Shown piece after piece: positions 13,335-52,845 of a stretch of 64,000 nucleotides of DNA (the stretch's first letter is position 1; the number at the start of each line of letters is the position of its first letter). The position numbers and the translations under genes are program-made. Source of the DNA: Gemmatimonadaceae bacterium (GTDB taxonomy: Bacteria; Gemmatimonadota; Gemmatimonadetes; Gemmatimonadales; Gemmatimonadaceae). The notes under the pieces were generated by a model. That model searched no databases. It saw only the letters and a list, made by a program, of their open reading frames with translations, and was not told the origin of the DNA. Where the stretch lies: NCBI GenBank assembly GCA_020846935.1, contig JADLCY010000002.1:310001-374000 (forward strand), in the 5' to 3' direction.

Positions 13335-14561
13335 TCAGTCGCGACTCGGATAGTCATAGTAGAGCAGCTGCTGTAAGCCGTCGGCGGTTGCGCGAGCCGC
13401 GTACAGGCCTCGCGCACCAAAACCAAGCAGACGCGTGCCGGCCGGAAACCGTGCGCGTGAGTAGGGCGACGCGCGCGAGGAGAGGATGGCGTACTCCACA
13501 GGGTTCTTCTCGTTCTGCGGGGCAACCTGAACCCAGACTTCCCCACTTGGAGCAGCCACCAGCGGAGCATCACCAACAAAGGGAGGCAGGAACTTCGGCC
13601 ATCGATAGTCCTTGTCGGTTCGTAATGTCCGACGCGCGGAGGCAGCAAACACCTTTCGAGTGCCCTGAGCGTCAATGCCCATGATCATCTGCGGGGTGGC
13701 GTTCTTCCAGGACAGCCACAGCTGGCGATGCCATTCAGCCACCGGCACGCGCCGTGCCGGGAGCGCAAGGGAGACGGTGGCGCCCCTGGGATTCACGTCG
13801 ACGCGCGCGCTACCTGCTCGCGCGACGAAAACATCGCCATTCTCTCCGACTGCCCATGCATCGGTCGCCGGAAAAGCTCCAGGCGGAGCTCCGGCGACAC
13901 GAACAGGCACTCCCAAAGTCGCCACGGTATCGAGCTTCCCCGACCCCCGGGCCAGCCGCAGGAGCGGAACTGAATCAATCCCGTCAGCGTCACTGCTCGT
14001 GCGCGGAGTACCCGAGAAGTACATCCGGCCTTGTCGATCCATGAACTGAGGCGGCTGAAAGCGGACCTCGCTGCCCCGCCATGTCGCGAAGGCAATGGTC
14101 TGCAAGAGCCGCGCGTCCGCTCCAAGCAAGGTGAGTCGCTCTGCACCCACATCCACCAACACTGAGGTGTCGCCGCGTAAGGCATACAACGCGGCAGGAA
14201 GGACGTACTCGCCAGGGCCCTGCCCCTCTCTCCCCACCTGCGTCGCGCGCCCGCTCCCTCGCGAGAGGATCATCACTCGGCGGTCGCCCGTATCCAACGT
14301 GAGGATATCTCCACTTGATAGCTCACGCACGGACACCAGGTACGTGAACTCCTGAGAGTAGACAATCTGGGGTGTGGCAAACGCGATCTCTCGCTGGGCC
14401 TCAGCTCGTGAGTTCGCAATCAGCAGTGCGCCACAGCTCAGCACGACCGACAAACGAGCGAGCCAAGGCCTGGGGCCGCTGGGCAGTCGCCTGCTCAACG
14501 CACGTGGGTGAGGCGGGGTGTCCCGCTGCCCTCCGAAGTACTTTCTGCCTCGCGTTCTCAT
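13335..14561 (-). CDS. Secreted six-bladed beta-propeller-like protein
   Basis: This 408-aa protein starts at the ATG at 14561 behind a perfect GGAGG site; a longer start 32 codons upstream lacks one. The N-terminus is unusually basic and then hydrophobic (LSVVLSCGALLIANSRAEAQ), so it is an exported protein with a long n-region. The body shows propeller-type repeats such as GDILTLDTGDRRVMIL and GQGPGEYVLPAALYAL, typical of 6-bladed TolB/NHL-like proteins. It resembles the propeller at 50290-51432 in style. No catalytic motif is visible. Confidence 0.7.
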   Translation of the reverse strand: MRTRGRKYFGGQRDTPPHPRALSRRLPSGPRPWLARLSVVLSCGALLIANSRAEAQREIAFATPQIVYSQEFTYLVSVRELSSGDILTLDTGDRRVMILSRGSGRATQVGREGQGPGEYVLPAALYALRGDTSVLVDVGAERLTLLGADARLLQTIAFATWRGSEVRFQPPQFMDRQGRMYFSGTPRTSSDADGIDSVPLLRLARGSGKLDTVATLGVPVRVAGAPPGAFPATDAWAVGENGDVFVARAGSARVDVNPRGATVSLALPARRVPVAEWHRQLWLSWKNATPQMIMGIDAQGTRKVFAASARRTLRTDKDYRWPKFLPPFVGDAPLVAAPSGEVWVQVAPQNEKNPVEYAILSSRASPYSRARFPAGTRLLGFGARGLYAARATADGLQQLLYYDYPSRD

Positions 14562-14675
14562 TTTCAGGCCTCCGTTCAACTCGTCCCTCCACCGACGTGA
14601 AACCTCGGCGGCTCGCCCAACTCGTTCGTCGCGCGATCTGGAGGCGTCGTGCGTCACCCAACCCGCCCGACGAAA

Positions 14676-50068: not shown

Positions 50069-50293
50069 ATGCGCTCAACAGTCCTCCGGCTGTGCCTGTT
50101 GTTCACCGCGGCGCTAGTGGTCGGAGGCGCTTCGGTGGCCGCCAGAGCGGATCAGACGGCCCTGGCCTATTGCGAGAACGATGTGTGCGTGTGGGGGATG
50201 TTCTGCGAGAATCGGCCCGCCTCCAACAAGGGTTGTGATGTCGAGAACGCATTCCCCCAGTTCTGCGACACGTATCTGTGCGGACAGCAATGA
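50069..50293 (+). CDS. Small exported six-cysteine peptide, copy 1
   Basis: This 74-aa protein has an AGGAG site 8 nt before its ATG. Residues 1-28 are a signal peptide ending AARA. The mature part of about 46 residues has six Cys (35, 40, 46, 56, 66, 71) with spacing C-x4-C-x5-C-x9-C-x9-C-x4-C, suggesting three disulfides. Its pattern matches the peptide at 52069: (Y/F)CE..D.C, then GC, then C(D/E)TY(L/V)C. I know no named family for it. Its stop overlaps the propeller gene as ATGA, so it is made together with that protein. Confidence 0.8.
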   Translation: MRSTVLRLCLLFTAALVVGGASVAARADQTALAYCENDVCVWGMFCENRPASNKGCDVENAFPQFCDTYLCGQQ

Positions 50294-51432
50294 GGGCGTG
50301 TCTGTTCGCCGCGGTGGCCGCCATCTGCGTGGTCGGCCCTTCGGTCGCCACAGCGCAGGTCATTGAGCGACATCCGACGCGGGCGAACCTTGCGCAGCGC
50401 GCGGACCACGTCGTCGGAATGAGGGACACGGTTTCCGGCAACGTGCGACTGGATGCGTTTGCCCGGCTGCTCCGCGCCGCGAAGCGCGTCGACTCCGTTG
50501 GAAGGTTGACCGGGCCGGTCGACGAGGCCATTGGAATGATCATGGATGTGGCCGTCGACAGCGTGGGGCGAACCTTCGTTCTCGACCGTGCGTTCTCTCG
50601 CATCCGCATCTTCGACCGGAGCGGCAAGCCGAGCGGTTTTGTTGGGCAATCAGGGGCCGGGCCGCTGGACTTCAGGAGCCCAATGGAAATCTGGGTGAAT
50701 GCGGGCGAGGTAGTGGTGGCGGACCTGGCGCTTGGCCTGAAGAGAATCCGGTTTGATTCGCGCGGCCAGCCGCAACTGCATCGGGTGATTCCGCCGGATG
50801 GGTGGGCGATGTGTCAGTCGCGGGGGCAGGTCATCAGCATGGGCACCGGAGTGCGAGGCGGGGACACGAGTGCAGCTGAGAGACTGGTGCGCGTGCGGGA
50901 CTCCACCGGCAGAGTCATTCGGCAGTTCGGTGCCGGGTACCAGGCTCGACAGGCGCTTGTTCGGAGCGTGATGAACGAGGGCGTTGTCGCGTGCACGGGC
51001 GGCGGCGATGTTGTGATCGCTCTGTCAAGACTGCCGTTCGTTCGAGGGTTTCGGCCCGACGGGTCCGAAGCATGGGTCACCAGGCTCTCCGATTTTCGCG
51101 TCGGCGTGTCGAGGGAACGAGTCAACGAGCGAGGGCAGCTGGCCATAGGCGTAGACCCCGACAACCCGGACGGATCGTTCACCATGCGCGCCAGGGAGCT
51201 GAGCGCGGGCATTGTTTGCGTTCAGGTAGGCCTGATGACGCTGCGCGCCCTGACAGCAAAGACGCTCTGGGAGCGCATAGACACGTACCTGATAGATGCA
51301 GCAAGCGGGCGAAGCGTCTTCGTCGCTTCGGACCTTCCCACGATAGGCAGTGTTCTCGGTCGGAGGATCTATGCGTTTCAGAACGAGCCGTTTCCCATGG
51401 TGGTCATCCTTGAAGCGAGGGCAACGTCATGA
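50290..51432 (+). CDS. Secreted beta-propeller-like protein of the Cys-rich peptide operon
   Basis: This 380-aa protein starts at the ATG overlapping the peptide stop. The signal peptide ends SVATAQ. The body has NHL/six-bladed-propeller phrasing: MDVAVDSVGRTFVLDRAFSR, IRIFDRSGKPSGFVGQSGAG, VVVADLALGLKRIRF and RGFRPDGSEAWVTRL. No catalytic site is visible. Propellers of this kind bind ligands or protein partners. Its 3' end overlaps the next gene as ATGA, making a three-gene translationally coupled unit. Confidence 0.78.
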   Translation: MRACLFAAVAAICVVGPSVATAQVIERHPTRANLAQRADHVVGMRDTVSGNVRLDAFARLLRAAKRVDSVGRLTGPVDEAIGMIMDVAVDSVGRTFVLDRAFSRIRIFDRSGKPSGFVGQSGAGPLDFRSPMEIWVNAGEVVVADLALGLKRIRFDSRGQPQLHRVIPPDGWAMCQSRGQVISMGTGVRGGDTSAAERLVRVRDSTGRVIRQFGAGYQARQALVRSVMNEGVVACTGGGDVVIALSRLPFVRGFRPDGSEAWVTRLSDFRVGVSRERVNERGQLAIGVDPDNPDGSFTMRARELSAGIVCVQVGLMTLRALTAKTLWERIDTYLIDAASGRSVFVASDLPTIGSVLGRRIYAFQNEPFPMVVILEARATS

Positions 51433-52040
51433 ACCACGATCCGGGAGGGCGAAGGAAGTGGATGCGTGATAGCGCGTTGCTTATCGGCACACTGTGGGGA
51501 GGAACATGGGCCGGGAGGGCGGTTGCGAAGCGATCTTTCGCGGCGGCGCGCGATGGCTTCAGTGACGGTGCAGTACCGAAGGTCGGTGGGCAGCTCCTTC
51601 TCGTGTATGTCGGATCCTCCAGGTGTGGTCCTTCAAACGCGGCGGACCTTCCGAACCTGGTGCGATCCATTTCCGGAGAGCTCCGCGCCGAGGGCGCGCG
51701 GCGCGGCCTCGCATTCGTGTCGGTTGGTGTTGGTCGCGAAGTCTCCGCCACTTCGGGCATGGTGCATCTCCACAAGATCGCAGCATTCGATGAGGTAGCT
51801 GCCGGTCAAGGGGTGCTCAATCAGGCGAGCGCCCATTTCGTGGATCGCGATCATCGGGGGATGGCCGCCACTCCTCAGCTTATCGTGCTGATTCGACGCG
51901 TCGGGGCCCTTCCGGCCGGAGGTGTGGATCCGGGTTTGGTCTCTGAGCGCGTTCTGCTGAGGAAGGTAGGGCTCCAGGATATTCGCAACTGGTCCGCGCT
52001 GGGCGCGCCTGTTCCCGAGAGCGACCTGGCATCAGCTTGA
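51429..52040 (+). CDS. Membrane-tethered thioredoxin-like protein with a CGPS site
   Basis: This 203-aa protein starts at the ATG overlapping the propeller stop. An N-terminal basic then hydrophobic segment (DSALLIGTLWGGTWAGRAV) suggests an anchor or signal. The core is thioredoxin-like: QLLLVYVGSSRCGPSNAADLP places Cys-Gly-Pro-Ser at the active-site turn, and AATPQLIVLI supplies the cis-Pro strand. The second active-site Cys is Ser, so it could form mixed disulfides but not reduce by the usual two-Cys route. Beside peptides with six Cys, a role in folding, isomerising or holding them is an attractive inference. Confidence 0.72.
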   Translation: MNHDPGGRRKWMRDSALLIGTLWGGTWAGRAVAKRSFAAARDGFSDGAVPKVGGQLLLVYVGSSRCGPSNAADLPNLVRSISGELRAEGARRGLAFVSVGVGREVSATSGMVHLHKIAAFDEVAAGQGVLNQASAHFVDRDHRGMAATPQLIVLIRRVGALPAGGVDPGLVSERVLLRKVGLQDIRNWSALGAPVPESDLASA

Positions 52041-52068
52041 CGCGATTCTGTTCACGGAGGTGGAAACC

Positions 52069-52314
52069 ATGGCCCGTACAGCTGAAGGTGCGAAGCGGTC
52101 GCGAAGTCGAACAAGGGTCGTCCTTGTTGCGTTGTTGCTGGGAAGCCCGGCAGCGGGGTGGCTTTCCGTTGCGGGCGCTGATTCCGTAAGCAATTCGGCG
52201 TTCTGCGAGATGGATCGGTGCTACGCGGGCTACTGCGGGCCCGTCTTCGTAACGACGGGTTGCAACATGACGGGGACGCTGAGGTGCGAGACGTACGTGT
52301 GTGAGCCTGAGTAG
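52069..52314 (+). CDS. Small exported six-cysteine peptide, copy 2
   Basis: This 81-aa protein has a GGAGG site upstream of its ATG. A basic n-region and hydrophobic segment (VVLVALLLGSPAAGWLSVAG) form the signal. The mature end has six Cys (46, 51, 56, 65, 73, 78) spaced C-x4-C-x4-C-x8-C-x7-C-x4-C. It aligns with copy 1 at FCEMDRC/YCENDVC, at the GC in the middle, and at CETYVC/CDTYLC, so the two are homologous. It lies 28 bp after the thioredoxin-like gene, in the same operon direction. Confidence 0.78.
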   Translation: MARTAEGAKRSRSRTRVVLVALLLGSPAAGWLSVAGADSVSNSAFCEMDRCYAGYCGPVFVTTGCNMTGTLRCETYVCEPE

Positions 52315-52437
52315 AACTGGCTCCCCCCATCCTGTGGCGACCTTCGAGCAGGCCATTTTGCTGCGCGATGAATGGGTAGCCGTGGCACGACGCGATCCGT
52401 ACGGGGTTGACTGGCTGGGCCCTCAGGGCACACTCCC

Positions 52438-52845
52438 ATGAGCCCGCGATCCTTCACGCCAGTCGCCGCCGCTCTCCTGCTTGCTTTCGGCGCTTACGCA
52501 AACCTGGAGGCGCAGCCTGCTACCGCGTTCTGGCCGCTCCCGGTCGAGCTACGCTATGAGGGCCCCGAGCGCGCCGAGCTGTGGGCGACTCTGGTGTGGG
52601 GGGCCACGTTCGAGGGCGTCTCGCTGACGTCACGTAGCACAGCAACGGGCGGCGACTCGCTACTGGTCGGCGTCGTCTCGATCACACAGAATGCTCTCGG
52701 CGGCATGGCCGTTTCGTTTGCGTTCGAAGGGGCCATGTCGCGCCGCGTTCGCTGCAATGGCGCCGGCAGCGCGACCGCTCCCGGAGGCAAACAGTTCATA
52801 GCTGGAGCATTGATCTCGTGGTCGATGCAGCGCCTGATCCGCTGA
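52438..52845 (+). CDS. Small exported protein, unrecognised
   Basis: This 135-aa protein has a signal peptide (RSFTPVAAALLLAFGAYANLEA). The mature part is beta-rich with alternating hydrophobics (PVELRYEGPERAELWATLVW, SLLVGVVSITQNALGGMAV) and a single Cys. I do not recognise a family. It follows the second Cys-rich peptide by 123 bp on the same strand and may be the last gene of that locus. Confidence 0.6.
   Translation: MSPRSFTPVAAALLLAFGAYANLEAQPATAFWPLPVELRYEGPERAELWATLVWGATFEGVSLTSRSTATGGDSLLVGVVSITQNALGGMAVSFAFEGAMSRRVRCNGAGSATAPGGKQFIAGALISWSMQRLIR

What the first reader, a model, noticed from the sequence alone, without database searches (positions are those of the whole stretch)
50069..52845. 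Unnamed locus: two homologous six-Cys exported peptides with a beta-propeller and a CGPS thioredoxin-like protein
Seen: two small secreted peptides share a six-cysteine pattern and the end motif C(D/E)TY(L/V)C. Between them lie a secreted propeller and a thioredoxin-fold protein whose second active-site Cys is Ser. The first three genes are chained by ATGA overlaps, so their products are made together. Known: pairing of small Cys-containing exported peptides with six-bladed propellers is reminiscent of NVEALA/propeller loci I recall in Bacteroides, but these sequences are not NVEALA peptides. Inference: the thioredoxin-like protein assists disulfide formation or isomerisation of the peptides, and the propeller binds or exports them. 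The peptides could be signals, toxins or structural surface knots.
Basis: partly seen in the sequence, partly recalled or inferred. Interest (0 to 1): 0.78.

Follow-up and report, generated by a model that had tools for sequence, protein, structure and literature searches.

The report
Six-cysteine peptide, propeller and redoxin operon
A recurring gene cluster in Gemmatimonadota and in a second bacterial phylum that includes Rhodothermales makes tiny exported six-cysteine peptides together with a propeller-shaped envelope protein and a one-cysteine thioredoxin-like helper, which looks like an undescribed system for folding and displaying small disulfide-locked peptides.

Summary
Two exported six-cysteine peptides (50069-50293, 52069-52314), a secreted six-bladed propeller and a thioredoxin-fold protein with a CGPS active site form one operon. 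A peptide profile built without the window copies recovers both as the top hits of 641 window ORFs (E 2e-8 and 2e-7; next 0.54). The thioredoxin-like protein belongs to a family absent from Pfam, NCBIfam and PDB sequence searches, present in 46/395 genomes of this phylum and 25/395 of a second one. Around 94 such loci, 63 six-Cys peptides lie on the same strand and 1 on the opposite; spacing is C-x4-C...C...C...C-x4-C; 74/94 have a propeller. The first active-site Cys is kept in 69/75 motifs; position four is mostly Ser. Some operons add a DsbA-like protein or a signal peptidase. Layout matches Bacteroides NVEALA loci, but the peptides are not NVEALA and the thioredoxin-like proteins do not match. 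Most likely the monothiol protein isomerises or holds the peptides while disulfides form, and the folded peptide partners the propeller at the envelope. Oxidation, binding and biological purpose are inferred, not shown.

The parts
50069..50293 (+). Peptide 1: exported six-cysteine peptide, 74 aa (C4C5C9C9C4C); likely mature part from about 50147 (ADQTALAYCENDVC...CDTYLCGQQ)
   Evidence: E 2.2e-8 against a profile of peptides from other genomes
50290..51432 (+). Secreted six-bladed beta-propeller (NHL/DUF5128-like), 380 aa, with the family's two conserved Cys; this copy lacks the lipobox that about 80% of relatives have
   Evidence: Pfam DUF5128 E 0.0015, below the curated cut-off
51429..52040 (+). 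Thioredoxin-fold protein with an N-terminal hydrophobic segment, active site CGPS (monothiol), cis-Pro motif TPQ
   Evidence: family not in Pfam or NCBIfam
52069..52314 (+). Peptide 2: exported six-cysteine peptide, 81 aa (C4C4C8C7C4C; upstream GTG at 52060 possible)
   Evidence: E 2.2e-7 against a profile of peptides from other genomes; AF2 model pLDDT 77, four short strands

Best explanation
The locus is an operon for a disulfide-locked microprotein and its partners. (1) Shown by sequence: small pre-peptides with a hydrophobic export signal and a core of roughly 32-50 residues holding six cysteines in the order C-x4-C...C...C...C-x4-C are encoded, in operon-like arrays, with one or two six-bladed propellers and one thioredoxin-fold protein; this arrangement recurs in two phyla. 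(2) Inferred: Sec exports the peptide and signal peptidase cleaves it (some operons carry their own S26 signal peptidase). In the oxidising periplasm three disulfides form, by the host's general VKOR/DsbA system or by a DsbA-like protein in the operon. (3) Inferred: the membrane-anchored CxxS thioredoxin-fold protein uses its single reactive Cys to form transient mixed disulfides with the peptide, so that wrong pairings are reshuffled or the peptide is held until correctly folded, as described for CXXS disulfide isomerases/holdases (PMC12384036). (4) Inferred: the folded acidic peptide is handed to the propeller, usually a lipoprotein, and works as its small subunit or ligand at the cell envelope. 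Estimated likelihoods: conserved operon 0.98; peptides exported and oxidised 0.85; Trx-fold protein acts on the peptides 0.65; peptide binds the propeller 0.55.
For: Two window peptides recovered by a hold-out profile. Thioredoxin-like family in 46/395 genomes of the phylum and 25/395 of a second phylum. 63 same-strand versus 1 opposite-strand six-Cys peptide within 4 kb of 94 loci; first and last gaps are exactly 4 in 53 and 52 of 63. Profile search of 249 whole genomes finds peptides in 11 genomes, all of which carry the thioredoxin-like gene. Propeller ends within 300 bases of the Trx ORF in 59/99, ATGA/GTGA junction in 24 of 59. Thioredoxin fold; first Cys 69/75, Ser at position four 36/69, Cys 20/69. 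DsbA-like genes in seven loci (two of them near-copies), S26 peptidase in five. In L108, L109 and L110 the Trx-like protein has lost its Cys and a DsbA-like gene is beside it. Host genome has two VKOR and seven Thioredoxin_4 matches over cut-off. Peptides and propellers often come in matched pairs.
Against: No direct evidence of translation, oxidation or binding. 47 of 94 Trx-like loci have no peptide within 4 kb by my filter; at least six of these have one 4.2-4.7 kb away and some contigs end, but loci such as L086, L095, L099, L103 and L111 look like a separate branch without peptide or propeller. Where position four is Cys (20/69) the protein could be a normal oxidoreductase. Peptide loops vary widely, so a single binding mode on the propeller is not obvious. 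Peptides were found next to Trx-like genes, so the co-occurrence is partly circular; the absence of hits elsewhere is not.
Confidence: 0.55

Rival explanations
1. The peptides are metal-binding carriers (Cys and Asp/Glu ligands), the Trx-fold protein is a SCO-like metallochaperone or thiol reductant that loads them, and the propeller is a metal or cofactor uptake lipoprotein.
For: Peptides are acidic (median net charge -5) and 15% Cys; SCO copper chaperones are among the fold neighbours of the Trx model; one relative gives a non-significant metallothionein match (E 0.1).
Against: Cys spacing is C-x4-C, not the CxxC/CxC typical of metallothionein; few His; SCO uses CxxxC plus His (general knowledge), and here only one Cys is conserved; DsbA-like oxidases in some operons argue for disulfides.
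Confidence: 0.15
2. The peptides are secreted signals or bacteriocin-like toxins, with the propeller as receptor, immunity or delivery protein.
For: Small, exported, often duplicated with divergent loops; propellers paired one to one with peptides in several operons.
Against: Acidic rather than cationic; no recurrent modification enzyme, ABC exporter or immunity gene; orthologous copies across related MAGs show a lower rate of amino-acid than of silent change, on few differences.
Confidence: 0.2
3. The peptide is the small catalytic subunit of a redox enzyme whose large subunit is the propeller, as in methylamine dehydrogenase (mauA light chain, mauB propeller, mauD thioredoxin-like).
For: Same three kinds of gene: small Cys-rich exported subunit, propeller, thioredoxin-like protein (general knowledge of mau operons).
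Against: Neither peptide nor propeller hits the methylamine dehydrogenase Pfam models; no conserved Trp pair for a TTQ cofactor; propellers are DUF5128-like.
Confidence: 0.05

Closest known systems
NVEALA peptide loci of Bacteroides-type genomes (PF14055 with PF15869/PF17170 propellers)
   Same: Small exported peptide directly followed by a six-bladed propeller lipoprotein, often in tandem pairs, with a thioredoxin-like protein and a Peptidase_S26 signal peptidase nearby
   Different: No NVEALA motif or PF14055 match in the peptides; regular six-Cys core instead; Trx-like protein is different (CTSC plus DUF1573 there; CxxS here; profile comparison gives only 1.9% probability)
TlpA/ResA/DsbE-type thioredoxin-fold proteins
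   Same: Thioredoxin fold by predicted structure (Foldseek E 3e-5; VIA Z 10.4, rmsd 3.5 over 140 residues to a tryparedoxin), exported, cis-Pro
   Different: No sequence-family match; mostly one active-site Cys (CxxS), motifs GSSxCGxSN and FDE...G..W.N
CXXS protein disulfide isomerases (ERp44, AGR2)
   Same: Single reactive Cys with Ser in place of the resolving Cys; expected to isomerise or hold clients through mixed disulfides (PMC12384036)
   Different: Eukaryotic ER proteins, no homology shown beyond the fold; no client shown here
Methylamine dehydrogenase operon (mau)
   Same: Propeller, small Cys-rich subunit and thioredoxin-like protein encoded together (general knowledge)
   Different: No Pfam match to its subunits, no Trp pair, peptides far smaller

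Membership tests
NVEALA peptides (PF14055) | Match to the PF14055 model / NVEALA motif | tested here: not met
   No PF14055 hit for the window peptides or relatives; own genome best E 0.8, elsewhere
NVEALA-type locus | Exported peptide beside a six-bladed propeller, thioredoxin-like protein and, in some, S26 signal peptidase | tested here: met
   versus Bacteroides-type loci; the propeller profile also hits NVEALA-locus propellers (best 7.7e-9)
NVEALA-type locus | Homologous thioredoxin-like protein | tested here: inconclusive
   hhalign probability 1.9%, 25 columns around the active site; no HMM hit
Thioredoxin fold | Thioredoxin-type alpha/beta fold with cis-Pro | tested here: met
   AF2 model with core blocks at pLDDT about 90; Foldseek and VIA matches; Pro conserved
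Dithiol thioredoxin/DsbA oxidoreductase | CxxC active site | tested here: not met
   CGPS in window; family mostly CxxS (36/69), CxxC in 20/69
DUF5128 six-bladed propeller (PF17170) | Score above the curated cut-off | tested here: inconclusive
   Window copy 18.3 bits against 22.9; relative in L125 scores 37.3
Methylamine dehydrogenase | Match to subunit models and Trp pair for TTQ | tested here: not met
   No hits; no conserved Trp
RiPP / bacteriocin | Recurrent modification enzyme, dedicated exporter or immunity gene | tested here: not met
   Clustering of neighbours of 88 loci shows none recurring
Disulfide-bonded peptide | Six Cys oxidised in the mature peptide | not testable with these tools
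   Needs mass spectrometry

The most novel reading that the evidence does not exclude
A phylum-spanning, so far undescribed envelope system in which families of disulfide-locked microproteins are folded by a dedicated bacterial monothiol (CxxS) disulfide isomerase/holdase and displayed on cognate lipoprotein propellers, with the NVEALA loci of Bacteroides as a second branch of the same design.
Probability: 0.4. Interest if true: 0.87.

Novelty: new variant of a known kind. Interest (0 to 1): 0.72.

Why it matters
The peptide and thioredoxin-like families match nothing in Pfam (2025) or NCBIfam (2026), yet recur as an operon across Gemmatimonadota and the phylum that includes Rhodothermales and Bacteroides-like genomes. 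The likeness to NVEALA loci suggests one general design behind a widespread, functionally unexplained group of exported peptides. A CxxS isomerase devoted to one peptide client would be a simple bacterial counterpart of ERp44/AGR2. The system offers clear, cheap tests.

Tried and rejected
NVEALA membership: rejected by profile. Methylamine dehydrogenase likeness: rejected. RiPP/bacteriocin reading: no maturation, export or immunity genes recur. Searching relatives with only the two-sequence peptide alignment gave no believable hits in 119 genomes, because the loops diverge; the Trx-like protein was the key that opened the family. Scanning named genomes with the diverse Trx alignment failed for lack of conserved stretches and succeeded with a narrower one. 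Fold search of the peptide model found no PDB match; the model is small and of middling confidence, so this says little. Sequence searches of PDB with the Trx family gave nothing. Literature searches for NVEALA, DUF5128, BF3164 and propeller/Cys-peptide operons found no description of such a system. ORF 52438-52845 was considered as a fifth member and rejected.

Full report
What is there. The window lies in a 4.5 Mb genome; the named genomes that carry the same family are mostly Gemmatimonadetes MAGs. At 50069-52314 four genes run on the + strand: a 74-residue exported peptide with six Cys in its mature part, a 380-residue secreted propeller, a 203-residue thioredoxin-like protein with active site CGPS, and an 81-residue six-Cys peptide. 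The first three overlap by ATGA; 28 bases separate the third and fourth. Third-position GC of the four genes (0.66-0.77) is well below that of flanking genes (0.84-0.91), which together with a patchy distribution suggests gain by transfer (inference).

The peptides are a real family. The two share 30% identity and all six Cys. Nothing else in 64 kb passes the same filter. A profile from 37 peptides of other genomes, with the window copies left out, ranks the two first and second among 641 ORFs at E 2.2e-8 and 2.2e-7, with the next at 0.54.

The thioredoxin-like protein opens the family. Peptide-based searching of relatives failed because loops diverge, but the thioredoxin-like protein has matches in nine other genomes of the same order. 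Reading their neighbourhoods showed six-Cys exported peptides beside most of the complete ones. A profile of eight (A2) found the family in 46 of 395 genomes of the phylum. A scan of named genomes added a Rhodothermales MAG (L125) with two such peptides, a propeller and a CKFSN thioredoxin-like protein. Searching the phylum of that genome found 25 of 395 with the family, again with peptides and propellers beside it. That phylum also holds NVEALA-bearing, Bacteroides-like genomes.

Numbers. Around 94 thioredoxin-like loci (some near-copies), 74 have a propeller close by. 63 six-Cys exported peptides lie within 4 kb on the same strand and one on the opposite strand, itself a family member. The first and last Cys gaps are exactly four residues in 53 and 52 of the 63; inner gaps vary. 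Six further peptides lie 4.2-4.7 kb away in the same arrays. Sixty-one distinct peptides have mature lengths around 47 and median net charge -5. In a peptide-profile search of 249 whole genomes, all 11 genomes with a hit were among those carrying the thioredoxin-like gene. The propeller stops within 300 bases of the thioredoxin-like ORF in 59 of 99 cases, at an ATGA/GTGA junction in 24 of these.

Anatomy of the partners. AlphaFold2 gives the window protein a confident thioredoxin core, matched to DsbE/ResA-type proteins and SCO1 by Foldseek and to tryparedoxins at Z about 10 by VIA-align. No Pfam, NCBIfam or PDB sequence family matches. The first active-site Cys is kept in 69 of 75 distinct motifs; given that Cys, position four is Ser in 36, Cys in 20, other in 13. 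The cis-Pro (TPQ), a G and a W-x-N motif are also conserved. Propellers carry a lipobox Cys in about 80% of 71 aligned members, though not in the window copy, and two further conserved Cys in 89%. The peptide model has four short strands at pLDDT 77 with no PDB match.

Extra genes that point to mechanism. DsbA-like genes with CPxC-type sites occur in L032, L072/L073 (near-copies), L085, L108, L109 and L110. In L108, L109 and L110 the thioredoxin-like protein itself has lost its active-site Cys, as if the DsbA-like protein had taken over thiol chemistry (inference from three related loci that form one clade). S26 signal peptidases lie beside the operon in L082, L093, L124, L178 and L194. The host genome has VKOR and several DsbA-like proteins, so the cell envelope is likely oxidising.

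Mechanism. Exported peptides with six conserved Cys, a thioredoxin-fold protein with one reactive Cys, and occasional DsbA-like oxidases fit best with disulfide-locked peptides whose pairing is corrected or guarded by the CxxS protein. A review of eukaryotic CXXS enzymes reports that they isomerise but do not oxidise or reduce, and hold clients longer (PMC12384036). The pairing of peptides with propellers, most of them lipoproteins, suggests that the folded peptide works with the propeller at the envelope. Oxidation, client relation and binding are not shown. What the complex does for the cell is open.

Relation to what is known. In Bacteroides-type genomes NVEALA peptides alternate with propeller lipoproteins (PF15869, PF17170) and sit with a thioredoxin-like/DUF1573 protein and a Peptidase_S26. 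The family's propeller profile hits these propellers (best 7.7e-9). The peptides do not match PF14055 and the thioredoxin-like proteins do not align convincingly. So it works like an NVEALA locus in layout, is not a member of the NVEALA peptide family, and is best called a new variant of that kind. The kind itself has no described function in the papers I could search.

Closest relatives of the window locus. In the tree of 82 thioredoxin-like sequences the window copy groups with L077 and L101 (support 100/98), both from the same family of bacteria. Both carry a peptide before the propeller and a second one after the thioredoxin-like gene, as in the window. Members from the two phyla are largely but not fully separated (six label changes against 27 in shuffles).

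Limits. Loci are MAG-heavy and not independent; two titles (Bryobacterales, Gammaproteobacteria; L118, L119) sit on contigs nearly identical to Gemmatimonadetes ones and are probably misbinned. The peptide filter was set after the first examples were seen, and peptides were sought beside thioredoxin-like genes; the strand contrast, the fixed x4 spacing and the hold-out test are the safeguards. About half of the loci lack a detected peptide within 4 kb. Some are cut by contig ends, some hold variants (eight Cys in L072/L073, fused in L074/L114), and some look like a separate branch.

Noticed in passing
   Followed up: partly
window 13335-14657 (-): A second propeller of the same broad family (E 1e-10) with no peptide or Trx-like gene beside it.
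   Followed up: no
L072 7527-8003 and L073: Tandem near-identical eight-Cys exported peptides (ACC...CCGPYC...CVxCSDPEDC) followed by a propeller and a DsbA-like gene: a second peptide type in the same setting.
   Followed up: partly
L114 6684-7394 (= L074): Six-Cys core fused in one ORF to a longer protein.
   Followed up: no
L108, L109, L110: Trx-like protein has lost its active-site Cys while a DsbA-like gene sits beside it.
   Followed up: partly
L039 542-2142, L086 3624-5989, L095 5638-7937: BlaI/BlaR1-like regulator and sensor pair near the Trx-like gene in three loci.
   Followed up: no
L118, L119: MAGs titled Bryobacterales and Gammaproteobacteria carry contigs almost identical to Gemmatimonadetes ones, probably misbinned.
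   Followed up: partly
L035, L037, L038, L093, L106, L107, L124; L076, L081, L092, L096, L118: Proteins with carboxypeptidase-regulatory-like domains (judged by eye) recur near the operon, mostly on the same strand.
   Followed up: no
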